Source: a candidate division WOR-3 bacterium (lineage in GTDB: Bacteria > Hydrothermota > Hydrothermia > Hydrothermales > JAJRUZ01). From it: a stretch of DNA of 64,000 bases. Shown here in pieces: positions 192 through 35,602 of this stretch. The notes under the pieces are model-generated. The model did not search any database. It saw nothing but the letters and a program-made list of their open reading frames with translations, and was not told the origin of the DNA. The stretch covers positions 1-64,000 of the forward strand of contig JBDRZL010000009.1 of assembly GCA_039803925.1 (NCBI GenBank), given 5' to 3'. A program made the position numbers and the translations under genes. Every line of letters starts with the position of its first letter. Within the stretch, counting starts at the first letter, position 1.

Positions 192-1439
192 TTACTTTAA
201 AACATCTGAATATTTTTTTAAAAAGGATTCAGTTATAATTGCGCAGGATTCCCCTAAGGGACAAGCACATAGCCCCTTCATTCTTTTATGAAGAACATCT
301 ATTATTTCTATTCCTTCTCCAATTTGAGTTTCTCTTTTCTCAATCTTTTCTAAAATATCATTTATTGCCCATGTTCCCTCGCGACAAGGGGTGCATTTCC
401 CACAAGATTCCTCCTTGAAAAATTTAACTGCACTCTTTAATAATTTTAAAAGTTCTCTTTTTTTATCCTCCTTATAACCAAAAACAATTATTGCACCTGA
501 ACCCGACATAGAACCTTTTTCTATAATTGATTCAAAATCGTAGGTAATATCAATCTCATCAGGTAAAAGAGGAGGTGCAGATATTCCACCTGGTATAACC
601 CCAAGAAGATGATAATTTTCTTTTATGCCTTCGCCTAAATCTTCAATTATTTCCCTTACAGTGATTTTTCCCTGTTCAATTTCATAAACTCCCTTTTTTT
701 TAACAATACCACTTAAAGATATAAGCCTTGTCCCTGTGCTTTTTGGAACCCCTATTTTTGAATAATTATCCCCTCCTATTTCAATTATTATTGGTATATT
801 AGAAAGAGTCTCAACATTGTTAATTACTGTAGGATAACCAAAAAGACCACAATTTGCAGGATAAGGTGGTTTTAACCTTGGGAAGCCCTTTTTACCTTCC
901 ATTGACTCAAGAAGTGCTGTTTCTTCACCACATATATAAGCACCTGCTCCTACAAAAATTTTTATTCTATGATTGAAGGAACTTCCTAAAATATTTTTTC
1001 CCAGAAATCCTATTTCTTCTGATTCCTTTATTGCCTTATAAATTCTATCATAAATCCACTTATATTCTTTTCTTAAATATATATATGAGACTTCAGCCTG
1101 AATTGCATAGGAGGAAATTATCATTCCCTCAATTAAAAGATAAGGTGCATAGAGTAAAATTTCTCTGTCCTTAAAAGTTCCTGGTTCTCCTTCATCAGCA
1201 TTACATATCAAAAATTTTTTTTCTCCATCTTTCGGTATAAAAGACCATTTTAAACCTGTAGGAAAACCAGCTCCACCCCTTCCCCTTAATCCACTTTTTT
1301 TAACCTCCTCAATAACTTTTTCAGGTGGAATTCTATCACCTAAAACTTTTTTAAGAGATAAGAATCCACCTTTTTGTATGTATTCATCAATGTTTTCAGC
1401 ATATTTTTTTTTGATCAAAAGAGTTTCAGATTTTTTCAT
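192..1439 (-). CDS. nuoF: NADH-quinone oxidoreductase subunit F (FMN/NADH-binding)
   Basis: This 415-residue protein is the NADH-oxidising flavoprotein of complex I or a related NADH-dependent enzyme. The FMN/NADH-binding glycine-rich segment GRGGAGFPTGLKW lies near residues 53-65. The C-terminal [4Fe-4S] ligands are Cys346, Cys349 and Cys352 (CGKCTPC) plus a Cys near 391-393. Length matches NuoF, and there is no fused ferredoxin domain of the HydB type. It overlaps the nuoE stop by 14 bases and is the last gene of the long minus-strand run. NuoF/HydB-like proteins also serve bifurcating hydrogenases, but the nuoIJKL genes in the same run favour a respiratory complex. Confidence 0.93.
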   Translation of the reverse strand: MKKSETLLIKKKYAENIDEYIQKGGFLSLKKVLGDRIPPEKVIEEVKKSGLRGRGGAGFPTGLKWSFIPKDGEKKFLICNADEGEPGTFKDREILLYAPYLLIEGMIISSYAIQAEVSYIYLRKEYKWIYDRIYKAIKESEEIGFLGKNILGSSFNHRIKIFVGAGAYICGEETALLESMEGKKGFPRLKPPYPANCGLFGYPTVINNVETLSNIPIIIEIGGDNYSKIGVPKSTGTRLISLSGIVKKKGVYEIEQGKITVREIIEDLGEGIKENYHLLGVIPGGISAPPLLPDEIDITYDFESIIEKGSMSGSGAIIVFGYKEDKKRELLKLLKSAVKFFKEESCGKCTPCREGTWAINDILEKIEKRETQIGEGIEIIDVLHKRMKGLCACPLGESCAIITESFLKKYSDVLK

Positions 1440-3443: not shown

Positions 3444-3988
3444 GCTCTTTCTATATATTCCCCGGTTCTTGTATCAACTTTTATTTTTTCACCAACCTTT
3501 ATATAAAGTGGAACTTTTACAACAAGACCTGTTTCAAGCTTTGCAGGTTTTGAACCACCTGAAGCAGTATCTCCTCTCACACCTGGATCAGTTTCAACAA
3601 CCTCAAGAACTACTGCACTCGGAAGAACTATTCCAACTGGTTTTTCATTAATATACTGAACCCTTACTTCCTGACCTTCTTTAAGATATAAAAGATAATT
3701 TTTTATCTGCTCCTTATTTAAAACAATTTCCTCATAGGTTTCAGAATCATAAAAAATGAAATTATCCCCCTCTGCATAAGAAAAAGTTGCTTCTCTTTCT
3801 CTCAATTCTACTTCTTCAAAATAATCTGCCTCTCTTAATGTTTTTTCAAGAACCTGTCCTGTCTCCACATTCTTTAATTTAGTCTTTACATGGGCTTGAC
3901 CTCTTCCCATCATTATATGTTGAAAATCTATTACCTCGTAAAATTTTCCTTCTAACTTTATAACCATTCCACGTCTGAATTCAGGCAT
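3440..3988 (-). CDS. efp: Translation elongation factor P
   Basis: This 182-residue protein relieves ribosome stalling at polyproline. It has the three beta-barrel domains of EF-P at full length. The loop that enters the peptidyl-transferase centre reads HIMMGRGQAHV, so the tip residue near position 29 is Arg rather than the modifiable Lys of E. coli. Thermus EF-P has a similar GRG loop. No EpmA/EpmB or EarP gene is visible here. The pairing efp-accB is common in bacteria. The ribosome site (AGGAA right at the ATG) is weak. Confidence 0.95.
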   Translation of the reverse strand: MPEFRRGMVIKLEGKFYEVIDFQHIMMGRGQAHVKTKLKNVETGQVLEKTLREADYFEEVELREREATFSYAEGDNFIFYDSETYEEIVLNKEQIKNYLLYLKEGQEVRVQYINEKPVGIVLPSAVVLEVVETDPGVRGDTASGGSKPAKLETGLVVKVPLYIKVGEKIKVDTRTGEYIERA

Positions 3989-4034
3989 TTCCTATTTTAT
4001 TTTTTTTAAGGACTTGAACCTTAAAGTTATTATT

Positions 4035-5150
4035 TTAAATTTTTTTAAGTCTTTTTGTAAAACCTGTTAGAATTTCAAGTTCTCCTTTTTTATTTATATA
4101 AGCTAAATCCTCAATCCTAACTCCACCTTTATTTTCAAGATATATTCCAGGCTCTATTGTGAAAACCATACCTTTATCAATTATTTCTTTTCCTCTTGGA
4201 GAAAGTGAAGGTTTTTCATGAATTTCAATTCCTACACCATGCCCTAAACCATGACCAAATTTTTCTCCATAACCTCTTTCAGTTATATAAGCTCTTGCCA
4301 CATTATCCACATCCCTAACATTCATCCCTACTTTAATTTCTTCCTCAACTTTAAGTAAAGCATTCAGAGTTATTTCATAAATCTCTTTAAACCAGTCAGG
4401 AGGATTATTACCAACCCAGAAGGTTCTTGTCATATCCGAGTGATATCCTTTGTAAACACTTCCCATATCAATAAGGAGTATAGAATTGTTTTTAATTGTA
4501 ACATTTCTTGGCTTTGCATGTGGCAAAGCTGAATTTTTACCTGAAGCGACTATTGTAGGAAAAGCAACTTGAAATCCATTTTTTTTCATCTCATATTCAA
4601 TTTCCAAGGCAAGTTCAATTTCCTTTGTTTTATCTGGTTTTAAAATAGATAGTGCTTTTTTCAATACTTTTTCTGAAAATTTCTGTGCTTTTTTAATTTT
4701 TTCAATTTCCTCCTCATTTTTATAAATTCTCAAATCCAGAACAGGTGAACTTATAGGTTTTATTTTTAATTTTTTCTTTTTTAATTCTTCATATAAATCA
4801 AGGGTTAAACTCTCCTTTTCACAGAGCAGAGTTTTTCCCTCTTTTAAAAGGTCAAAAATTTCATCAAATTTCTTTATTATTACAATTTTAAAAAGCTTTG
4901 AAATTTCTTTTTTTGACTGTAACATATACCTGAAATCAGTTAAAAAATAATTTTTATTTTTTGTTATCAGAACATAACCTGAAGAACCTGTAAAACCTGT
5001 AAGATAAAACACATTCTGTAGATTGTTAATAAAAAAACCATCAGCCTCATTAAGTTCTAATAAATTCTTTAAAAAATCAACTCTCTTTTTTAAGGAGGTT
5101 AATCCACTCAATGAAACTTCTGAAATTTTTTTCTCTCGTTTCCTTTTCAT
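4035..5150 (-). CDS. pepQ: M24 Xaa-Pro aminopeptidase/dipeptidase
   Basis: This 371-residue creatinase-fold metallopeptidase releases N-terminal residues next to proline. The five metal ligands are recognisable: two Asp in the LLIDMGS...HSDMTR stretch, His in GHGVGIEIHE, and Glu in TIEPG and RIED. The start at ATG 5150 overlaps the preceding TPR gene by 74 bases. It is nevertheless supported by AAAGGAG seven bases upstream. A TTG at 5111 is a weaker alternative. The order pepQ-efp-accB resembles the common pepP/pepQ-efp-accB cluster of many bacteria. Confidence 0.9.
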   Translation of the reverse strand: MKRKREKKISEVSLSGLTSLKKRVDFLKNLLELNEADGFFINNLQNVFYLTGFTGSSGYVLITKNKNYFLTDFRYMLQSKKEISKLFKIVIIKKFDEIFDLLKEGKTLLCEKESLTLDLYEELKKKKLKIKPISSPVLDLRIYKNEEEIEKIKKAQKFSEKVLKKALSILKPDKTKEIELALEIEYEMKKNGFQVAFPTIVASGKNSALPHAKPRNVTIKNNSILLIDMGSVYKGYHSDMTRTFWVGNNPPDWFKEIYEITLNALLKVEEEIKVGMNVRDVDNVARAYITERGYGEKFGHGLGHGVGIEIHEKPSLSPRGKEIIDKGMVFTIEPGIYLENKGGVRIEDLAYINKKGELEILTGFTKRLKKI

Positions 5151-6828
5151 CAGTTTTCTCCTTTATGGGTTTTTCCTCATATTTTTCTGGTTCAATATCC
5201 TTTTTTTCTTCTTCAAATTCCTCAAAGAGTTCTGAAACTTCCTCTGGTAATTCTGCTTCTTCAACCTTTTCTTCTTTTATTTCAAGCTTTTGCTCCTTTC
5301 CTATAATTTCTTCCTTTTTCTCCTCTTCGGTAATTTCTTTCTTTTCTTCAATAAATTTTACCTCTTCCTTTTTCTCTTCAATTAACTCTATAAGTCCCTT
5401 TTCTTCTGATTTTTCTATAATAATTTCCTCTATACTTTCAGAAGGTCTTTCAGGTTCTTTAAAAATTTCACTTAAAGGAACCTCTTCTTCAGCTCCAATT
5501 ATTAATTCTTCTTTTTTTTCTATTTTTTCTTCCTTTTCAATTTCTTCTAAAAATTGAGAAGGATGTCCACTCAATTTTTCTTCTTTTTCTTCAAATATCT
5601 CCTTTATATCAAAAGTTTCAGCTTCTTTTATTATTTCTTCTTTTTCTTCCTCAAAAAAAGTTCTTTCCAGTAAAATATCTTCTTTTTTTTCAAAAATTTC
5701 AACATCAAATTTTTCCTTTAACTCAGTAGTTTCAAACTCTGATTCTTCAGTGCTTTTTTCTTCTTTTTTTATATCTTCTATACTAATAAACTTTTCTTCC
5801 TTTTTCTTTTCAAGAATATCCTCGACAAACTTAAAATCTTTTAATTCTTCCTCTTCAATAGTTTCTGTTTCTTTTTCAATTTCTTTCAAAATTTCTTTTG
5901 CTTCTTCTGGAATTTCAGGTAATTCTAATTCTGTACCTAATACTTCCTTTTCTTCAAGAATATCAAGAAGTGGTTCATCAGGAGGAGTTAAAAGTTCTTC
6001 ATTAGCTATAGTTTTTTCTTCAATCACAGGTATTTCTTCTTTTAATATTTCTTCTGTCTCTATGGGTTTTTCCTCGGTCAATGTTATATCTTCTCTCAAT
6101 AAATCTTCACTTTCTAAAATTTTTTCCTCACTTAAAAGTACTTCTTCTTTCAAAATTTCTTCTTTCTCTTCGATGAGTTTCTCTTCCCCTAAAAGGGTTT
6201 CTTCCTTTAAAAATTCTTCCTCTTTCAATAATTTTTCTTCACCTAAAATAGGTTCTTCTTCTAAGAATTTCTCAGTTAATTTTTCCTCTGTTATAGGGAT
6301 TTCCTCCTTTAAAAGATCTTCTTCGTCAATTTTTTCTTTACTTAAAATAGGTTCTTCTTTTAAAAAATCCTCGGTTATTTCTACCTTTTCTTCAGAAAAT
6401 TGAGGAACCTGAACTTTTAATTTCTCTTCAAGAGTCTTTATTTTATCTTCAACCTCTGAAGTTAAAGGGTCAAGGTCATAAAGTTTTTTATAATAATCTA
6501 AAGCCTCTTCTTCTCTTCCTAATTTTTCACAGGTTTCTGCTAAAAGTCTTAAAGCCACAAGATGATTCTCATCTATTTCTAAAACTCTTTTTAAACTTTC
6601 CCTTGCAAGTTCAAGCTCGTTTCTTTCAAGGTGAACCTTTGCTTTTATAAAATGTGCTACCTGATAATCAGGATGTATTTTTAATCCTTCTTCAAGCACA
6701 GCAAGTGCTTCATCATACATTTTTCTTTTTCTATAAGCATCAGCAAGTGCTGCAAAAGTCCTTGACTTTCTTCCTTCTTTCTCCCATTTATTAAATAACT
6801 CTTCAATTTCTTTAAATTCGCTGTTCAT
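5077..6828 (-). CDS. TPR protein with a very long acidic repetitive tail
   Basis: In this 583-residue protein, residues 1 to about 145 form tetratricopeptide repeats (for example DEALAVLEEGLKIHPDYQ). Residues 150-560 are an imperfectly repetitive, Glu/Lys-rich tract with recurring units of the type EEKLLKEEEFLKEE and EEILKEEVLLSEE. The last 16 residues (FRSFIEWINLLKKES) regain a globular or amphipathic character and may be a docking motif. There is no signal peptide, so it is probably cytoplasmic. The function is unknown; it may be an extended scaffold. The tail's base composition gives long Ser-rich antisense frames, which are artefacts. Confidence 0.8.
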   Translation of the reverse strand: MNSEFKEIEELFNKWEKEGRKSRTFAALADAYRKRKMYDEALAVLEEGLKIHPDYQVAHFIKAKVHLERNELELARESLKRVLEIDENHLVALRLLAETCEKLGREEEALDYYKKLYDLDPLTSEVEDKIKTLEEKLKVQVPQFSEEKVEITEDFLKEEPILSKEKIDEEDLLKEEIPITEEKLTEKFLEEEPILGEEKLLKEEEFLKEETLLGEEKLIEEKEEILKEEVLLSEEKILESEDLLREDITLTEEKPIETEEILKEEIPVIEEKTIANEELLTPPDEPLLDILEEKEVLGTELELPEIPEEAKEILKEIEKETETIEEEELKDFKFVEDILEKKKEEKFISIEDIKKEEKSTEESEFETTELKEKFDVEIFEKKEDILLERTFFEEEKEEIIKEAETFDIKEIFEEKEEKLSGHPSQFLEEIEKEEKIEKKEELIIGAEEEVPLSEIFKEPERPSESIEEIIIEKSEEKGLIELIEEKKEEVKFIEEKKEITEEEKKEEIIGKEQKLEIKEEKVEEAELPEEVSELFEEFEEEKKDIEPEKYEEKPIKEKTDEKETREKNFRSFIEWINLLKKES

Positions 6829-6864
6829 AATTTAATTTTAAATATAAAAGTTAAAAATTTCAAA

Positions 6865-8634
6865 TCAAATTGAAAAAATTATTATAAGTAAAAATACAAG
6901 AATTAAAAGGGTTATATAAAAGGAAGGTTTTCTTTTGAAAAGTTTAAAAATTAATCTACCTAATAAAATAGTTAATTTTCCAATACCTTCTACAATTAAA
7001 AGGTCTATAAGACCCCTATCAAATTTTGTTGAAAAAAATTTTGAAAGGAAATTTATAATTCCGTAAACAATTTTTGAGATAAAAAAGTCATAAAAATTTA
7101 AAATTTTACTAATTCTTTCATTAAATTGGATAGGCTTTTTTAAATAAACTTTAAGAGCAAGATAAATCCCTGTTATTGATAAAAACAAGGGAAAAAATTG
7201 ATATAAAATAGGATTATAAAAAGTAATTTCCTCTCCAAAATTTTTAAAATAAAATTCCTCAAAAATATTAAGACCTGTTAGAATAACAAAAATTGATAAA
7301 ACTAAAAGGGACAAATTCATCACACCTTCAATTTTTTCCTGAGGATTTATCTTTAATTCTCCCTCAAAACATAATACATAACCCCTCATTATGTAAAAAC
7401 TTGTTAAAAAAGCACCTATAGAAGCAAGATAAAATAAAAATAAATTTTTAAAAGAAGCATTTATTATAAGTTCTTTACTTATAAATCCGCCTGTTAAAGG
7501 AAAACCTGAAAGTGCAAGGGAACCTAAAAGAAAGGTATAGGAAGTAAAAGGATGAATTTTTCTCATTCCTCTTGTTTCAAATATATCTATCTTTTTATGA
7601 ATAATATGCATAACATTTCCAGAGGATAAAAATAGAAGAGCTTTAAAAAAGGCATGGGTTAAAAGGTGAAGAAAGGCAAGAAGTGGATAGGATATGCCTA
7701 TTGCAAAAAACATATAACCAATCTGAGATATTGTAGAATAAGCTAAAATTCTCTTTAAATCCCTTTCAAAAATTGCTATAATTCCTGATAATAAAAAGGT
7801 TAAAGTAGATAAAAAAATTATTATATTTAAAATTTGTGGATACAAACTTAACAGTGGGAAAATTTTTATAAGCAAAAAAACTCCTGCTGTTACCATTGTA
7901 GCTGCATGAATAAGTGCAGAAACAGGAGTTGGACCTTCCATAGCATCAGGTAACCATACATAAAAGGGAAACTGAGCTGACTTTCCACAGGCTGCCAAAA
8001 TTCCGGAAATTAAAAGAAGGGGTATTAAAGGATTAGAAGGTTCTTCTAAAAGTGCACTTATCTCAAAGGTATTAAATATTTTGTAATAAATTAAAAGAAA
8101 TAAAATGAAACCAAAATCCGCGAATCTCGTTATAAGAAAAGCTTTTGTCCCAGCATCTTTTGCTTCTTTTCTCCATGATTCATAGGAAATTAGTAAATAA
8201 GAACAAAGTCCAACCCCTTCCCATCCTATAAACATGAGAAGAAAATTTCCTGAATAAACTATAAGGAGCATGAAAAAAACAAATAAATTTAAAAAGGCAA
8301 AATATCTGTAAGGGGAATCATCTTTTTTCATATAACCAGTTGAATAAAGGTGAATTAAACCTGAAACAAGTGTGACCATTAAACCCATTAAAAAATTTAG
8401 TCTATCAATTAAAAAAGAAAAATTAACATCTATATCAGAAAAGGTGATAAAAGGAATGTAAAAGTATTCCCCTTCAAAACCTATGAATTTAAAATGCAAA
8501 ATGAAAGAAAGGAAAACAAAAAAGGTTGCTAAAAAACCACTTTTTTTTGCGTTTTTAAACCCGAGGATACCCTGTAAAAGAGAGCCAATAAGTGGAGAAA
8601 TAATAAGGAAAAGGAAAATTATTTTATATGTCAT
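6865..8634 (-). CDS. nuoL: NADH-quinone oxidoreductase subunit L
   Basis: This 589-residue antiporter-like proton-pumping subunit of complex I is membrane-embedded with about 14-16 hydrophobic helices. Family motifs include GWEGVGLCSYLLI and the segment WLPDAMEGPTPVSALIHAATMV with the transport Lys/His residues, followed by a C-terminal helical extension. It overlaps nuoK by 11 bases. It is followed by a TPR gene rather than the expected nuoM and nuoN, which are not in the window. Confidence 0.95.
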   Translation of the reverse strand: MTYKIIFLFLIISPLIGSLLQGILGFKNAKKSGFLATFFVFLSFILHFKFIGFEGEYFYIPFITFSDIDVNFSFLIDRLNFLMGLMVTLVSGLIHLYSTGYMKKDDSPYRYFAFLNLFVFFMLLIVYSGNFLLMFIGWEGVGLCSYLLISYESWRKEAKDAGTKAFLITRFADFGFILFLLIYYKIFNTFEISALLEEPSNPLIPLLLISGILAACGKSAQFPFYVWLPDAMEGPTPVSALIHAATMVTAGVFLLIKIFPLLSLYPQILNIIIFLSTLTFLLSGIIAIFERDLKRILAYSTISQIGYMFFAIGISYPLLAFLHLLTHAFFKALLFLSSGNVMHIIHKKIDIFETRGMRKIHPFTSYTFLLGSLALSGFPLTGGFISKELIINASFKNLFLFYLASIGAFLTSFYIMRGYVLCFEGELKINPQEKIEGVMNLSLLVLSIFVILTGLNIFEEFYFKNFGEEITFYNPILYQFFPLFLSITGIYLALKVYLKKPIQFNERISKILNFYDFFISKIVYGIINFLSKFFSTKFDRGLIDLLIVEGIGKLTILLGRLIFKLFKRKPSFYITLLILVFLLIIIFSI

Positions 8635-8896
8635 AGTTATCTTCTTCCCTTTCCTTTGTTAAATTAAGTAAAATAGAAAGTCCTATTGCTGTTTCACCTG
8701 CAATTATGGCAAGTATGTAAAGGAAAAAGGGAGCATTTTCAAAACCTTTTTTTGTTATATTCATAACAAAAAGAAGAAGTAGAGAGTTAAAAGCTATTTC
8801 AACTCCAATTAAAAAATAAACAAAACTTCTTTTGAATAGAATTATTAAAAGAGAAAGGAAAAAAGAAAAGATTACTGCAAAACTTTCAAGATTCAT
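8624..8896 (-). CDS. nuoK: NADH-quinone oxidoreductase subunit K
   Basis: This 90-residue protein has three transmembrane helices. It has the conserved acidic residues in helix 2 (GVEIAFNSLLLLF) and helix 3 (AGETAIGLSI) that line the proton path of complex I. Length is close to the usual 100. It overlaps nuoJ by 11 bases and nuoL by 11 bases, so the three are translationally coupled. Confidence 0.93.
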   Translation of the reverse strand: MNLESFAVIFSFFLSLLIILFKRSFVYFLIGVEIAFNSLLLLFVMNITKKGFENAPFFLYILAIIAGETAIGLSILLNLTKEREEDNYDI

Positions 8897-9335
8897 CCCT
8901 AATAAGCAAAAATGAACCTACAATAGCAACTAAAAGTAAAACTGAAACAAGCTCAAAACCTATGTAATCCTTTATAAGAAAATTGCTAAGTTTTTTGATG
9001 TTAAAATAAATTGTTTTTCTATCAAAATAATTTGAAATATTAAAGGAAATAAAAATAAGAATATAGGATAATATAAGATAAATAAAAAGATTAAATTTCC
9101 CTTCCCTCAAAGTTTTTTCAATTTTGATTAAGGGTAAAATAAAAACAAAAATTACAAGGATTGTCCCTATATAGAGAAAAATTATCAAAAGGCCAAATAA
9201 GGGATTATTCAAGTAAAAATATAGAATTCCTGTTATTAACGAATTTAGGAAAAAATAAAAAAGAAGACGGGATAATTTTTTAGAAATTAAAATTAAAAAG
9301 GTGGTAAGAGGTAAAAGTAAAAATAAAATTTTCAT
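8886..9335 (-). CDS. nuoJ: NADH-quinone oxidoreductase subunit J
   Basis: This 149-residue hydrophobic protein has four to five predicted helices and the conserved segment YIGTILVIFVFILPL, which matches the ND6/NuoJ pi-bulge helix. It overlaps the nuoI stop by 4 bases and nuoK by 11. Identification rests on this motif and on its position between nuoI and nuoK. Confidence 0.9.
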   Translation of the reverse strand: MKILFLLLPLTTFLILISKKLSRLLFYFFLNSLITGILYFYLNNPLFGLLIIFLYIGTILVIFVFILPLIKIEKTLREGKFNLFIYLILSYILIFISFNISNYFDRKTIYFNIKKLSNFLIKDYIGFELVSVLLLVAIVGSFLLIRDES

Positions 9336-9835
9336 TTTTGTGGAGTTTCCTCTTTTGGAATAATAATAGCTCCACCCTTTGGATCACCCCTCCTCTCAAA
9401 AGATAACCATGCTCTCTTTGCAGGAGTTTGGGGAGGATCCAAAAGTTCATCCTTTGTAAGGACCATTCCTCTCCTTGAAGTTCCAGCGAGTTCAAAAAAT
9501 TTATCCATAACAAGAGCTTCTGTAGGACAGGCTTCTACACAAAATCCACATAAAATACATCTTCCATAATCTATTTCGTAAACTCTTGCATATCTTTCAG
9601 CATGGGATATAGGATTTTCTGGATCATTTTCTTCAGCTTCAATATAAATGGCATCAGTAGGGCAAGCTCCTGCACATAACATACATCCTATGCATCTTTC
9701 AAGTCCGTTTTCCCATCTCTGCAATCTGTGTTTCCATCTTGTTCTAAAATACATTTCCTTCTTCTTTTCGGGATACTCAATTGTTTTTTTCTTTTTAAAT
9801 AAATGCTTAAAAACAAGGATTAAAGGTTTTAACAT
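9332..9835 (-). CDS. nuoI: NADH-quinone oxidoreductase subunit I (2x[4Fe-4S])
   Basis: This 167-residue ferredoxin-type subunit carries clusters N6a and N6b between the peripheral and membrane arms. The two motifs are CIGCMLCAGACP and CILCGFCVEACP, both complete. The C-terminus is a Pro/Gly-rich extension. It starts one base after the stop of a small upstream ORF and is the first recognisable nuo gene of the run. NuoH, which normally precedes it, is absent here. Confidence 0.95.
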   Translation of the reverse strand: MLKPLILVFKHLFKKKKTIEYPEKKKEMYFRTRWKHRLQRWENGLERCIGCMLCAGACPTDAIYIEAEENDPENPISHAERYARVYEIDYGRCILCGFCVEACPTEALVMDKFFELAGTSRRGMVLTKDELLDPPQTPAKRAWLSFERRGDPKGGAIIIPKEETPQK

Positions 9836-29903: not shown

Positions 29904-30350
29904 TTAAACTCTTTTAATAACTTCTGATAGAAGTATTTCAAGTCTTTTATTTCCTTCATCAATCATTCTCTGTGTTTCCATTATAAATTTTTCTAGTCTT
30001 TTATTTCCTTCTTCAATCATTTTTTCTGTGTTTTTTCTGCTTTCTTCAATCATTTTTTCTGTGTTTTTTCTGCTTTCTTCAATCATTTTTTCTGTGTTTT
30101 TTCTGCTTTCTTCAATCATTTTTTCTGTATCTTTTTTGCTTTCATCAATCATTTTTTCTGTATCTTTTTTGCTTTCATCAATCATCCTTTGGGTTGCTTC
30201 AATCATTTTTTGAGTTGCTTCAATCATCTTTTTTGCTCTTTCATCTTCCTTTTGTATGAGTTTATTTGTAAAATAAGAAAGGATAAGGGGTTGAATTAAA
30301 GCAAGAACTCCTAAAATAAGTGCAAGAATATTCACTGTTTCAGTTGTCAT
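29904..30350 (-). CDS. Membrane-anchored coiled-coil protein with 11-residue repeats
   Basis: In this 148-residue protein a single transmembrane helix (about 7-28) is followed by a long coiled coil. It is built from two 7-residue units (KMIEATQ type) and then tandem 11-residue units: RMIDESKKDTE, KMIDESKKDTE, three identical KMIEESRKNTE, and KMIEEGNKRLE. Such hendecads form slightly right-handed coils. The function is unknown; it could be a spacer or tether at the membrane. No ribosome site; a TAAAAT sits six bases before the ATG. Confidence 0.75.
   Translation of the reverse strand: MTTETVNILALILGVLALIQPLILSYFTNKLIQKEDERAKKMIEATQKMIEATQRMIDESKKDTEKMIDESKKDTEKMIEESRKNTEKMIEESRKNTEKMIEESRKNTEKMIEEGNKRLEKFIMETQRMIDEGNKRLEILLSEVIKRV
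30011..30175 (-). repeat. Five tandem 33-bp coding repeats
   Basis: Units of exactly 33 bases start at 30011, 30044, 30077, 30110 and 30143. The first three are identical, and the last two differ at a few positions. They encode the 11-residue coiled-coil units of the surrounding gene. Identical neighbouring copies indicate recent slippage or unequal recombination, so copy number may vary between strains. Confidence 0.9.
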
Positions 30351-31210: not shown

Positions 31211-32137
31211 TTATCTATAAACTCCCCTTTTTATATTATCTGTTGTTCCAAAAGTTCTTTTATGTTCTTCGAGCAATTTTTCAAAATATGAATCTACTAT
31301 TTTCTGGATTTCATTTATTTCTTCTTCCTTTAAATGTTTGAATCTTCCTTGAATCTGAAAATATTCCTTTAAAGGGAGCCCCTTTGGCATATAATTTATT
31401 TTAACTTTATCACCATCTTCTACTTCATATAAGGGGAAAAATTTCGTTTCAACTGCAAGTCTTGATGCCTTTATTGTAAGTTCAGAATCCATTCTCCATC
31501 CAGGAGGGCATGGAGCAAGAACATGTATGAATCTTGTTCCTTTTATTTCTTTAGCTTTTTTTACCTTATTATAAAGGTCAAGGGGAAAGGCAACTGTTGC
31601 TGTCGCAATATAGGGAATTCTATGTGCTCTCATAATCTCAACTATATTCTTTTTAGGTCTTGGATTAGGACTTTCAAAAGGTGTTGTGGTTGTCCATGCT
31701 TTATAAGGAGTTGCCCCTGACCTCTGAATACCTGTATTCATGTAAGCCTCATTATCGTAACAAATATAAAGAATGTCTTCATTTCTTTCCGCTGCTCCAG
31801 ATAATGCCTGAAGCCCAATATCAAAAGTTCCTCCATCACCTGCGAAGGCAAGGACATTTATATCAGTCTTACCTCTAATATTTAGTCCTGCTCTTATTCC
31901 GGTTGCAGTTGCTGCTGCTGTTTCAAAGGCAGTATGAAAAACTGGAACATTAAGAGAGTGGTATGGATAAGGTCCATCAATTATTGTCCAACAGCAAGCT
32001 GGAATAGTAGTAATAGTATTTTTACCCAAAGCTCTTAAAACATGCCTCATTATTATAACTGCACCACAACCCTGGCATGATAAAACACCGGGATTTAAAA
32101 CTTCTTCCTGTAAAAGTTCTTTCCATTCAAAAGCCAT
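31211..32137 (-). CDS. porB: Pyruvate:ferredoxin oxidoreductase beta subunit
   Basis: This 308-residue thiamine-diphosphate-binding subunit contributes to oxidative decarboxylation of pyruvate to acetyl-CoA. The TPP motif runs from AFAGDGGTFDIG to YDNEAYMNTG, and the N-terminal CQGCGA and later Cys pair supply the proximal [4Fe-4S] ligands. Substrate could be another 2-oxoacid, but the sequence looks PorB-like. It is the last gene of the four-gene por operon, with AAGGAGG upstream. Confidence 0.93.
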   Translation of the reverse strand: MAFEWKELLQEEVLNPGVLSCQGCGAVIIMRHVLRALGKNTITTIPACCWTIIDGPYPYHSLNVPVFHTAFETAAATATGIRAGLNIRGKTDINVLAFAGDGGTFDIGLQALSGAAERNEDILYICYDNEAYMNTGIQRSGATPYKAWTTTTPFESPNPRPKKNIVEIMRAHRIPYIATATVAFPLDLYNKVKKAKEIKGTRFIHVLAPCPPGWRMDSELTIKASRLAVETKFFPLYEVEDGDKVKINYMPKGLPLKEYFQIQGRFKHLKEEEINEIQKIVDSYFEKLLEEHKRTFGTTDNIKRGVYR

Positions 32138-32148
32138 TTTTTCCCTCC

Positions 32149-33348
32149 TTATAAGTTTATATTTTCTTCCTTTAATCCCCAGAAAATAATATCCTCGGAA
32201 GTTTTTCTTTTTTCTGCATCTTTTATTATCCCATAAACATCAGAAGGTGTTATATCCCTTCCTCCAAGACCTACAATATATCCAATGAGTTTTGGTTTTT
32301 TTCTTGATGTGTAAAGGGAAGACCTTATTTCATTAAAGAAAACACCACCAAGCCCAAAGGATATATTTCTATCCAGAACAATAACTTTTTTTCTTCCTTC
32401 AAGGAGTTCTCTTACTTTATGGAAGGGGAAGGGTCTTAAAACTCTTATTCTCAATACACCGATTTTTTTATTTTCATTTTTTCTTATTTCATTTACAGTA
32501 TATTTAACAGTTGAGGAAATTGCTCCAGAACTCACAATTACGATTTCAGCATCATCCATCATAAATTCCTCAACAAGTCCCCATCTCCTTCCGAATTTTT
32601 CTTCAAATTCTTCACCGGCTTTTTCAATTTCATAAAGTGCCATTTCCATAGCTTTTTGAATTTTATAGCGAAATTCCATATAGGGACCTGAAGGAGAAAC
32701 AACTGCACCTATTGCAAAGGGATTTTCAGTAGAAAGTGCCCAGGGCAAATTAAGAGGTGGCAAAAATTCATCCACTTCTTCCTGAGCAGGTATTTCAACT
32801 GGTTCAGCAGTATGGGACAAAATAAAGGCATCAAGAACAATCATTGTAGGAAGAAAAACTCTTTCTGAAACCTTGTAGGCAAGTATAACAGAATCAAGAA
32901 CTTCTTGGTTGGATTCACAGTAAATCTGCATCCAACCTGTATCTCTCTGGGAAATTGTATCGTTCTGATCAGACCATATTGACCATGGAGCCCCAACAGC
33001 TCTATTAATTGCTGCCATGACAATTGGCAATCTATCACCTGCTGCCCAGTGTAAAAGTTCATGCATTAAAAGTAATCCCTGTGAAGAGGTTGCTGTGAAA
33101 GTTCTTGCTCCAGTTATACTTGCACCGATGCAAACAGCCATTGCTGAATGTTCTGATTCAACATTCACAAAAGTTGCATTTAATTCCTTTTTACCACACA
33201 TTTCTGAGAGAAGTTCCACAACCTGAGTTTGTGGTGTTATTGGATAGGCTGATATAACCTCTACCCTTGATAACTTAACACCATAAGAAACTGCATGATT
33301 GCCATATAAAACTTTTTTTGTTTTCTTCTCAATTTTTAATTTTTCCAT
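32149..33348 (-). CDS. porA: Pyruvate:ferredoxin oxidoreductase alpha subunit
   Basis: This 399-residue subunit contains the pyrimidine-binding domain of the TPP enzyme. Recognisable segments are VISAYPITPQTQVVE, FVNVESEHSAMA, GARTFTATSSQGLLLMHE and the DRNISFGLGG region near residue 330. Length matches the separate alpha subunit of four-subunit PORs. It is preceded by AAAGGGGAT and followed 11 bases later by porB. Confidence 0.94.
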   Translation of the reverse strand: MEKLKIEKKTKKVLYGNHAVSYGVKLSRVEVISAYPITPQTQVVELLSEMCGKKELNATFVNVESEHSAMAVCIGASITGARTFTATSSQGLLLMHELLHWAAGDRLPIVMAAINRAVGAPWSIWSDQNDTISQRDTGWMQIYCESNQEVLDSVILAYKVSERVFLPTMIVLDAFILSHTAEPVEIPAQEEVDEFLPPLNLPWALSTENPFAIGAVVSPSGPYMEFRYKIQKAMEMALYEIEKAGEEFEEKFGRRWGLVEEFMMDDAEIVIVSSGAISSTVKYTVNEIRKNENKKIGVLRIRVLRPFPFHKVRELLEGRKKVIVLDRNISFGLGGVFFNEIRSSLYTSRKKPKLIGYIVGLGGRDITPSDVYGIIKDAEKRKTSEDIIFWGLKEENINL

Positions 33349-33367: not shown

Positions 33368-35032
33368 TTAAACCATCTGAATTATTCCCCTTGGACACTC
33401 TCTTGCACAAATACCACAACCTTTACAAAAATCATAATCTACAGAGGGTCTGTTATCCATCCATAATATTGACATATCAGGACAGTAAACAAAACAATTT
33501 CCACAGGAATTACAATAACCACAGGAGAAACACCTTTTTGCTTCCTTTATAGCCATTTCTTCTTGTAAAGTTTTTACTTCCTCATCAAAGGTTTGTATTC
33601 TTTCTTCTACAGATAGCTCAACAGGATGAACTGCTTTTTCTTTATCAAAGTATTCAGTGTTTATTAGCATAAAGGAAACAGTTTTTGGCGGAACCTCCCT
33701 TACATTTATATCTTCACCTTTTAGAAATCTATCAATACTTTCAGCAGCTTTTTGAGCCCAGGATTCAGCCTCAACAACTGTTGAAGGACCCTGAATAAAA
33801 TCTCCACCAGCAAAAACACCTTTAACTTTCATAGCTCCTGTCTTTTTATCAGCAAAAGGCCACCCATCATCACCAAGATATTCGGAAGGTAAAGCGCTTC
33901 TATCAGCCTCCTCACCTATTGCTTTTATTACAAAATCATACTCCTCTTCATAAACTGCGCCATCAATGGGAATTGGTCTTCTTCTTCCTGAAGAATCAGG
34001 TTCTCCAAGTTGCATCTTTTGAAGAGTTAAAACTATTTTATCATTCTTCTTCTGAGCTTTTATCGGAAGAACTAAAAGATGAAATGGAATCCCATCGCTT
34101 TTTGCTTTTTCTCTTTCTTCTTCAAGAGCTGGCATTTCTGCTTCAGTTCTCCTGTAAAGTATTTCAGGATTTGCCTTAATTCTTTTTAGTGTTCTCACAA
34201 CATCCATTGCTACATTACCTGCTCCTATACAGGCTACTTTTTTGCCTATGAATTTTGAGATATCTTTCCCTTCATTAACTTCCTTTAAAAAATGTAATCC
34301 TGAGAGCATTAAATCCTCACCCTCAATTTTCATTTTCTTTTCCACCCATGCTCCAATAGCAATAAAGATAGCATCAAATTTATCCCTAAGTTCATCTATG
34401 GAAAAGTCTTTTCCGAGTGCTTTATTTGTTTCAATTTTTATTCCCATTTTATAAAGCATATCAAACTCTCTATCCAAAATATCCTTAGGTAATCTGTAAG
34501 AAGGTATTCCATACCTTAATACTCCACCAGGAAGAGATTCTCTTTCATAAATTAAAACAGAGTGTCCCTTTCTCCTTAAAAAGTAAGAAGCAGCCATTCC
34601 AGCTGGTCCAGAACCTATCACTAATATCTTTTTACCTGTATCCGAAGGAATTTCCTTAACTTTATATCCCCTATTAAGGATATAATCACCTACGAATCTT
34701 TCCAATTCTCTTATTGAAATTCTTTCATCAAACCTTTTTCTGTTACATCCGATCTGGCAAAATGCAGGGCAAACTCTTCCTGTTATAGCTGGAAAGGGGT
34801 TTTTTTCAAGTAAAATATCAGCTGCTCTATCCAGGTTTTTTTCAATAATATGGAAAAAATACTGAGGAATTTTTGTACTTATAGGGCATGCTTTTGAACA
34901 AGGGGCAGCTTTATCTTCTATTACAGGTTTTAAATTTTTCCATGAACCTGTTTTTAAAACCCTTGTAGAACCAGTTGAAAGAGCAATCTCTGGTAATTCA
35001 TTGATATCTTTATAAGAAATTCTTTTATCCAT
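33368..35032 (-). CDS. GltD-like NAD(P)/FAD oxidoreductase fused to PorD ferredoxin
   Basis: In this 554-residue protein, residues 1 to about 130 are the Fe-S N-domain of glutamate synthase small subunits (ACPISTKIPQYF, RVCPAFCQIGC). Residues 134-450 hold the FAD (GSGPAGMAASYF) and NADPH (GAGNVAMDVVRT) folds. The last about 60 residues are a two-cluster ferredoxin (CGYCNSCGNCFVYCP and CKGCGICARECP) of PorD type. It sits where porD is expected, between porG and porA, so it likely couples pyruvate oxidation to NAD(P)(H). Confidence 0.9.
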   Translation of the reverse strand: MDKRISYKDINELPEIALSTGSTRVLKTGSWKNLKPVIEDKAAPCSKACPISTKIPQYFFHIIEKNLDRAADILLEKNPFPAITGRVCPAFCQIGCNRKRFDERISIRELERFVGDYILNRGYKVKEIPSDTGKKILVIGSGPAGMAASYFLRRKGHSVLIYERESLPGGVLRYGIPSYRLPKDILDREFDMLYKMGIKIETNKALGKDFSIDELRDKFDAIFIAIGAWVEKKMKIEGEDLMLSGLHFLKEVNEGKDISKFIGKKVACIGAGNVAMDVVRTLKRIKANPEILYRRTEAEMPALEEEREKAKSDGIPFHLLVLPIKAQKKNDKIVLTLQKMQLGEPDSSGRRRPIPIDGAVYEEEYDFVIKAIGEEADRSALPSEYLGDDGWPFADKKTGAMKVKGVFAGGDFIQGPSTVVEAESWAQKAAESIDRFLKGEDINVREVPPKTVSFMLINTEYFDKEKAVHPVELSVEERIQTFDEEVKTLQEEMAIKEAKRCFSCGYCNSCGNCFVYCPDMSILWMDNRPSVDYDFCKGCGICARECPRGIIQMV

Positions 35033-35044
35033 TTTTCACCTCCT

Positions 35045-35602
35045 TTATAATCCTTTTACACTTTGAAAGGCTTCTTCAGCAGCTTTAATATTTTCTTCTT
35101 TCTTAACAGAAACTTCTTCTTCTATCGCATATTTTAATTCTTCAAGCCCAAAAATTTTGCTTACCTTTGCAAGGGCTCCCAAAATTGAGGTATTCACAAT
35201 TGGTTGAGTTCTTGACCCAAGCTTGTACTTAACAGCAATTTCTGTGGCATCAACTGTATAAACCTTAAAATTTCCTTTAAAATTAAAATCTTCTGGATTT
35301 TTAGGTGAATTTATTATTATTTTACCATTTTCTTTTAAACCCTCTGTAACATCTATCATTTCAAGAAGTGATGTATCAAGAATTACAATAATATCAGGGC
35401 TATATATATTACATCTTAAAAAAAGTTTTTCATCAGGATTAAAGACTCTTAAAAAAGCTGTTACAGGTGCTCCTCTACGTTCAACTCCAAACTGGGGAAA
35501 GGCAAGGGGATAGTAGCCTCCTTTAAAAGCCGCTATTGCACTTACCTTTGAAGCTACTACTGCCCCCTGACCTCCCCTCCCATGAAATCTAATTTCAATC
35601 AT
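35045..35602 (-). CDS. porG: Pyruvate:ferredoxin oxidoreductase gamma subunit
   Basis: This 185-residue subunit starts [17 protein letters not shown], the classical gamma-subunit beginning. The ATG at 35602 is chosen because a strong AGGAGGG site lies 8-9 bases before it; a longer frame from a TTG at 35626 would place the ribosome site inside the coding region. It is the first gene of the por operon, behind a good promoter and a leader with two palindromes. Confidence 0.93.

What the first reader, a model, noticed from the sequence alone, without database searches (positions are those of the whole stretch)
33368..35032. PorD ferredoxin fused to a GltD-type NAD(P)/FAD oxidoreductase inside the por operon
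The porD slot is occupied by one protein with GltD and PorD parts. This would pass electrons between pyruvate oxidation and NAD(P) directly, without a free ferredoxin, or enable bifurcation if another subunit joins.
Basis: partly seen in the sequence, partly recalled or inferred. Interest (0 to 1): 0.5.

Follow-up and report, generated by a model that had tools for sequence, protein, structure and literature searches.

The report
NADP-reductase module nested inside PorD subunit
The small iron-sulfur subunit of a 2-oxoacid-oxidising enzyme has a whole flavin-and-NADPH-handling module inserted in it, so the enzyme can probably make NADPH directly; in some related bacteria the NADPH-binding part has been cut out again while every iron-sulfur ligand was kept.

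Summary
Window 33368-35032 (-) encodes one 554-aa protein between porC and porA-porB. It is not an end-to-end fusion: a profile of classic PorD matches it in two pieces, so a GltD-type FAD/NAD(P) module sits inside PorD, just before the first cluster motif. The architecture is that of a curated but functionally unnamed family (PRK12771) and recurs in por-type operons of several phyla. An NAD-linked relative is known (phenylglyoxylate:NAD+ oxidoreductase). "Pyruvate" is doubtful: TPP-subunit scores and fabH/ptb/buk neighbours in relatives point to branched-chain 2-oxoacids, and the genome has a second, classic POR operon. Bifurcation is unsupported.

New here: in orthologous operons of one phylum the D slot holds (a) classic PorD, (b) the intact nested protein, (c) one with a diverged NAD(P) domain, or (d) a 366-379 aa form with the NAD(P) domain absent and FAD motifs eroded, yet all 15 cysteines kept (12 of 12). 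Form (d) is one clade inside the intact lineages. I read (b) as a direct 2-oxoacid:NADP+ coupler and (d) as a flavoprotein reduced to a probably flavin-free, four-cluster wire. No biochemistry was possible.

The parts
33368..35032 (-). delta subunit gene: PorD with a nested GltD-type module, 554 aa
34904..35032 (-). residues 1-43: PorD N-terminal arm (KTGSWKNLKPVIED)
   Evidence: classic-PorD profile, first piece, i-E 1.2e-11; 0 of 69 GltD-like controls show it; arm present in PDB chain 9bt4_G
34643..34903 (-). residues 44-130: Fer4_20 cluster domain, C45 C49 C88 C92 C96 and E111
34313..34642 (-). residues 131-240: FAD domain, first half (GSGPAG, GGVLRYGIP)
   Evidence: eroded in the deleted form
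33848..34312 (-). residues 241-395: NAD(P) domain (GAGNVAMD, YRR); absent in the deleted form of families f4, f6, f10
33698..33847 (-). residues 396-445: FAD domain, second half (AGGDFIQGPSTVVEA)
33371..33544 (-). residues 497-554: EAKRCFSC segment and PorD ferredoxin core (10 Cys)
   Evidence: TIGR02179 66.2 bits; classic-PorD profile, second piece, i-E 7.2e-17
35045..35602 (-). porC (gamma); likely ATG at 35602, ORF finder start TTG 35626
   Evidence: PF01558, TIGR02175 202 bits, cut-off 81
32149..33348 (-). porA (alpha)
   Evidence: PF01855, PF17147; PorA_Arch 494 bits, cut-off 550
31211..32137 (-). porB (beta, TPP subunit), branched-chain type favoured
   Evidence: PRK11864 401.8 versus PRK11865 375.5 bits, cut-offs 405 each

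Best explanation
The protein is the delta (PorD) subunit of a four-subunit CoA-acylating 2-oxoacid oxidoreductase, into which a GltD-type module (two [4Fe-4S] sites, FAD, NADP site) was inserted between the PorD arm and the PorD ferredoxin core. Proposed electron path: 2-oxoacid on TPP, PorB cluster, two PorD clusters, two Fer4_20 clusters (C45/C96/C501/C504 and C49/C88/C92/E111), FAD, NADP+. So it works as a 2-oxoacid:NADP+ oxidoreductase, most likely on branched-chain 2-oxoacids (an anaerobic counterpart of the branched-chain dehydrogenase complex), giving acyl-CoA plus NADPH. In one related clade the NAD(P) domain was lost and the flavin site eroded, leaving a four-cluster delta subunit that should again hand electrons to ferredoxin. 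SHOWN: domains, nesting, gene order, ligand conservation, the deletion and its single-clade distribution. INFERRED: cluster assignments, NADP rather than NAD, substrate, direction of flow, loss of FAD in the deleted form.
For: Full-length PRK12771 match plus PorD model. Two-piece classic-PorD match in 35 of 35 in-phylum proteins with an N-terminus, 0 of 69 controls. porC-delta-porA order in 18 of 21 intact and 12 of 12 complete deleted forms. All 15 Cys and E111 kept in every sequence that covers them; FAD and NAD(P) motifs kept in intact forms, YRR in 21 of 21. Model of the module matches NfnABC, StnC, NfnB, GltD, DPD. Substrate: TPP-subunit scores and FabH, PTA_PTB or Buk neighbours in relatives.
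Against: No biochemistry. In the window's own family no fabH, ptb or buk lies beside the operon and buk is absent from the genome. The NCBIfam alpha model PorA_Arch is the best hit for porA (494 bits), ahead of the branched-chain alpha model (444). The AlphaFold model leaves the PorD arm and core under pLDDT 50, so the wire is not seen in structure. Three of 7 proteins from other phyla did not give the first PorD piece.
Confidence: 0.65

Rival explanations
1. One reading: it is a pyruvate:NADP+ oxidoreductase (POR proper), with the same electron path.
For: PorA_Arch is the best alpha-subunit model for porA; the window family has lost the branched-chain neighbours.
Against: PorB scores branched-chain over pyruvate (401.8 versus 375.5), the reverse in the genome's second, classic operon (318 versus 394.1); FabH upstream of porC in 10 of 18 intact loci, FabH or Buk in 13 of 22 classic loci.
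Confidence: 0.3
2. The enzyme still delivers electrons to ferredoxin; the nested module is an entry or side port (NADPH drives reductive carboxylation, or ferredoxin and NADP are both served).
For: PorD clusters are fully kept and could reach ferredoxin; GltD-like modules normally feed electrons from NADPH to partners (PMC8097209, passages).
Against: NADPH at about -370 mV (PMC10482914, passage) is a poor donor for 2-oxoacid synthesis (couple near -500 mV, recalled).
Confidence: 0.2
3. Flavin-based bifurcation or confurcation at the FAD, as in NfnB.
For: The NfnB-type glutamate (E111) and the R180 equivalent of StnC R239 / NfnB R201 are kept in intact forms (passages of PMC10482914; residue counting mine).
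Against: No second flavin subunit or acceptor branch in the operon; StnC carries the same arginine and does not bifurcate.
Confidence: 0.04
4. The NAD-deleted relatives still bind FAD and pass electrons through it to an unknown partner, instead of being flavin-free wires.
For: Family f6 keeps a recognisable N-terminal Rossmann half (NAD_binding_8 33.5 bits, cut-off 21.9; Pyr_redox_2 26.8, cut-off 26.1).
Against: G142 and G170 are replaced or missing in 12 of 12 and the GGxLRYGIP loop is gone; the two f4 and f10 proteins scanned match no FAD family.
Confidence: 0.2

Closest known systems
NCBIfam PRK12771 / NF009410 'NAD(P)-binding protein' (subfamily model)
   Same: Full-length match, same order of parts; members beside porC/porA/porB-type genes in Proteobacteria and an Acidimicrobiales MAG
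   Different: No function assigned in the model; its cut-off is also passed by larger multidomain GltD proteins; the NAD-deleted forms score only 176-239 bits
Phenylglyoxylate:NAD+ oxidoreductase (PadEFGHI; Hirsch 1998, title seen in the reference list of PMC5109826)
   Same: Same enzyme class coupled to NAD+; PadE, PadG, PadI models match gamma, alpha, beta here, all below cut-off
   Different: Delta subunit PadF is a separate 78-position PorD-like protein in NCBIfam; the flavin subunit PadH is separate (recalled)
2-oxoglutarate:NADP+ oxidoreductase KorABC of Azoarcus evansii (recalled, paper not held)
   Same: 2-oxoacid oxidation coupled to NADP+ through a flavoprotein subunit (recalled)
   Different: 2-oxoglutarate-type alpha and beta subunits; not compared by sequence here
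Classic PorD of POR/VOR (9bt4_G)
   Same: N-terminal arm and two-cluster core
   Different: No inserted module
NfnB, StnC, GltD, dihydropyrimidine dehydrogenase
   Same: Fold and cofactor order of the module; DPD also links a GltD-like domain to an 8Fe ferredoxin (PMC8097209, passages)
   Different: Other partners and substrates; EAxRCxxC segment lies at the N-terminus in NfnB and DPD-type subunits, after the FAD domain here
Pyruvate:NADP+ oxidoreductase of Euglena (recalled; one search found no paper)
   Same: Works like it: 2-oxoacid oxidation with NADP+ in one complex
   Different: Unrelated P450-reductase-type flavoprotein fused to a single-chain PFOR (recalled)

Membership tests
PRK12771 / NF009410 | Score over the curated cut-off with near full-length coverage | tested here: met
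   526 bits, cut-off 516, residues 19-554, profile 24-563 of 566
PorD / KorD delta subunit (TIGR02179) | Two-cluster ferredoxin core over the cut-off | tested here: met
   66.2 bits, cut-off 60.05
PorD / KorD delta subunit (TIGR02179) | N-terminal arm present and gene between porC and porA | tested here: met
[quoted passage not shown]
Glutamate synthase small subunit (TIGR01316/01317/01318) | Score over curated cut-off | tested here: not met
   314.9, 213.9, 260 bits against 471.75, 447.7, 482.95
Phenylglyoxylate dehydrogenase (PadE/G/I) | gamma, alpha, beta subunits over curated cut-offs | tested here: not met
   137, 296, 264 bits against 300, 700, 700
Pyruvate synthase (POR) | PorA/PorB equivalog models over cut-off | tested here: not met
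   493.6 of 550 and 375.5 of 405
Branched-chain 2-oxoacid oxidoreductase (VOR) | Beta subfamily PRK11864 over cut-off | tested here: inconclusive
   Window 401.8 of 405; relative L038 414.6 passes, L070 404 does not
Branched-chain 2-oxoacid oxidoreductase (VOR) | Activity with branched-chain 2-oxoacids | not testable with these tools
   needs assay
Flavin-based electron bifurcation | Second flavin or acceptor branch encoded with the complex | tested here: not met
   Operon holds only porC, delta, porA, porB

The most novel reading that the evidence does not exclude
The electron outlet of this enzyme is an evolving, swappable adaptor: a flavin-NADP reductase was inserted inside PorD, turning a ferredoxin enzyme into an NADP-dependent branched-chain 2-oxoacid dehydrogenase, and in one lineage was dismantled from the nucleotide end inward (NAD(P) domain diverged, then absent, flavin site erased), leaving a four-cluster flavin-free delta subunit whose two extra clusters are remains of the lost reductase and now lengthen the wire to another partner.
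Probability: 0.4. Interest if true: 0.7.

Novelty: new variant of a known kind. Interest (0 to 1): 0.55.

Why it matters
Anaerobes usually send electrons from 2-oxoacid oxidation to ferredoxin. A built-in NADP reductase would give up redox energy for direct NADPH supply, and fabH next door in relatives suggests one enzyme making both primer and reductant for branched-chain fatty acids. The series classic / nested / diverged / NAD-deleted in orthologous operons is a natural experiment on how redox complexes gain and lose electron outlets, with matched enzymes that could be compared at the bench. The NAD-deleted proteins pass the generic PorD model and lie far below the PRK12771 cut-off, so automatic annotation would probably hide the event.

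Tried and rejected
Rejected: bifurcation (no partner subunit); glutamate synthase membership (scores below cut-off); a chance or misassembled fusion (conserved in many genomes); 'fusion at the end of PorD' (two-piece match). I expected the deleted form to go with extra GltD-type proteins: at E <= 1e-90, 12 of 13 genomes with the deleted form (G019 included) have at least one GltD-type match and G031 has none, while f1 (4 of 4 genomes) and the f9 genomes with a match (4 of 8) have only one each, their own fusion; but other intact families also have several, so there is no clear association.

Led nowhere: ten paper searches showed no description of a GltD-PorD protein in the listings I read; most subscription papers are not in the library. 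The Rfam scan gave only a tRNA. In one search I translated one fragment (G013) in a wrong frame; it was dropped from counts. The label 'noD_adjacent' is partly an artefact of my ORF picker: classic PorD was found by tblastn in 5 of those 10 loci (L170, L189, L190, L194, L207). The tree leaves out 23 of the 79 rows (near-copies, gappy rows, the long row L106). G019 was counted as deleted in the trees from a partial ORF at a contig edge (155 aa); the '12 of 12' counts exclude it. The label 'degenNAD' for f8 and f9 may be wrong: f8 has E where R294 stands, which could mean NAD instead of NADP.

Full report
OBSERVATION. The ORF at 33368-35032 (-) is real, 554 aa, in an operon-like run porC, this gene, porA, porB. 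Pfam and NCBIfam show Fer4_20, a FAD/NAD(P) oxidoreductase domain and a PorD core. The whole protein passes the PRK12771 model (526 bits, cut-off 516) and the C-terminus passes the PorD model (66.2, cut-off 60.05). PRK12771's cut-off is also passed by 660-1500 aa multidomain proteins in this phylum, so full-length coverage and the frame length of 555 matter more than the score.

NESTING, NOT END FUSION. I built a profile from 22 classic PorDs found in orthologous operons of the same phylum (98 positions). It hits the window protein twice: from residue 2 (profile from position 5, i-E 1.2e-11; the reported end, residue 79, runs past the arm) and at 502-553 (profile 41-93, i-E 7.2e-17). The same two-piece match occurs in all 35 in-phylum proteins whose N-terminus is present (20 intact, 3 of f9, 12 deleted) and in 4 of 7 from other phyla (3 gave only the second piece). 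None of 69 GltD-like proteins taken from other contexts shows the arm. The arm belongs to bona fide PorD: a classic PorD aligns through it with PDB chain 9bt4_G. So a GltD module was inserted into PorD directly before its first cluster motif.

CLUSTERS. Fifteen cysteines (45, 49, 88, 92, 96; 501, 504, 507, 510, 513, 517, 536, 539, 542, 546) and E111 are present in every sequence that covers them: 20 or 21 intact, 3 or 4 diverged, 12 deleted, 7 from other phyla. NfnB and DPD-type subunits carry an N-terminal EAxRCxxC segment before PCxxxCP; here that segment aligns with the C-terminal EAKRCFSC, as it does in StnC and NfnABC. By analogy with DPD (ligand scheme recalled; the cluster chain is described in PMC8097209, passages) I assign C45, C96, C501, C504 to one site, C49, C88, C92, E111 to the other, and the remaining eight to the two PorD clusters: four [4Fe-4S] in all. 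E111 corresponds to StnC K170, a glutamate in NfnB (alignment, passages of PMC10482914; the residue count is mine). This is inference: the AlphaFold model (mean pLDDT 76, GltD part mostly about 90) leaves the arm and PorD core below 50. Foldseek puts the modelled protein next to NfnABC, StnC, NfnB, GltD and DPD.

DISTRIBUTION. Among 147 genomes of the phylum, 70 have the same TPP-subunit type (PorB E <= 1e-95). In these operons the D slot is (a) classic PorD (22 loci by ORF; 5 more by tblastn), (b) the intact nested protein (21 sequences; 18 between porC and porA, 2 cut by contig ends, 1, G050, elsewhere), (c) nested with a diverged NAD(P) domain (f8, f9), or (d) a 366-379 aa form without the NAD(P) domain (12 complete, all between porC and porA, families f4, f6, f10; G019 partial). 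I read the context of a chosen set of these loci, not of all 70 genomes. Outside the phylum PRK12771-type proteins sit beside porC, porA or porB-type genes in Proteobacteria and an Acidimicrobiales MAG; the Calditrichaeota example (L088) shows no such neighbour on its contig.

THE DISMANTLED FORM. In (d), 5-10 residues remain where the intact protein has aligned positions 229-396. GxGxxG, GGxLRYGIP and GD..GP are lost or altered in all 12, though f6 keeps a weak Rossmann signal and G031 keeps a GGD. Mean identity to the intact proteins of f1, f7, f11/32: PorD core 66-68% (those among themselves 66-68%), arm 40-44% (38-41%), Fer4_20 37-47% (55-60%), first FAD half 27-40% (54-58%). In f8 and f9 the NAD domain drops to 32-33% (59-62%). 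Trees of PorA+PorB+PorC place (d) as one clade (quick tree 98; careful tree 100/99), sister to f8 (95; 97/94) within the intact lineages, and f9 separately beside f7 (99; 100/99). So the domain was lost once and diverged at least once more independently. Whether f8 and f9 are decaying or have changed to NAD is open. Classic PorD loci form a clade (99; 100/99) between two groups of intact ones, so gain versus loss of the insert at the base is not resolved.

SUBSTRATE. The window PorB scores 402 bits with the branched-chain subfamily model and 376 with PorB (cut-offs 405 each); a deleted-form relative scores 415 and 373; the second, classic operon of the same genome scores 318 and 394. FabH lies directly upstream of porC in 10 of 18 intact loci with a visible upstream side; FabH (9) or butyrate kinase (4) in 13 of 22 classic loci. 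PTA_PTB-type genes lie upstream in the three loci of three families where I identified that gene. In 7 of 12 deleted-form loci a classic POR operon is encoded divergently next door. In the window's own family none of these neighbours is present and butyrate kinase is absent from the genome. The alpha subunit points the other way, with PorA_Arch as best model (494 bits) over the branched-chain one (444). I favour branched-chain 2-oxoacids but do not exclude pyruvate.

MECHANISM. Most likely: 2-oxoacid on TPP, PorB cluster, four delta-subunit clusters, FAD, NADP+. NADP over NAD rests on YRR (recalled as a 2'-phosphate motif), kept in 21 of 21 intact in-phylum rows and 6 of 7 from other phyla. 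Bifurcation has no partner in the operon. In (d) electrons should leave from a cluster to ferredoxin.

COMPARISON AND NOVELTY. The architecture is a known curated family of unnamed function, and NAD-linked members of the enzyme class are known (phenylglyoxylate:NAD+ oxidoreductase; title seen). What I did not find, in the ten searches listed under Tried and rejected, is a description of the nesting inside PorD or of the NAD-deleted descendants. That is a new variant of a known kind.

Noticed in passing
L033 (G000:C2:182000-199000), 3659-9375: Second 2-oxoacid oxidoreductase cluster of the same genome: a classic porC-porD-porA-porB operon next to a two-gene 2-oxoacid:acceptor oxidoreductase (alpha subunit passes TIGR03710).
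   Followed up: partly
L035, L038, L039, L041, L042, L045, L046: In families f4 and f10 the operon with the NAD-deleted delta subunit stands head to head with a divergent classic POR operon, and is often followed by an M18 aminopeptidase gene.
   Followed up: partly
L050:4588-5238: In G003 a small aspartyl-protease-like gene lies between porA and porB of the orthologous operon.
   Followed up: no
L091:5357-7039: A contig filed under a Bathyarchaeota MAG carries a porC and the start of a fusion protein 52% identical to the window's: horizontal transfer or a binning error.
   Followed up: no
L077:920-3448 and L174: In G050 the nested protein lies away from the porC-porA-porB operon, which has no porD; beside the nested gene is a 262-aa ORF with a PorD-like ferredoxin stretch.
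   Followed up: partly
window 192-1439, 6865-8634, 9332-9835: ORFs that look like NuoF, NuoL and NuoI subunits (read from the translations, not scanned): possible further electron-transfer complexes in the window.
   Followed up: no
window 29904-30350: A 148-aa ORF made of near-identical MIEESRKNTEK units, a repetitive, probably coiled-coil protein.
   Followed up: no
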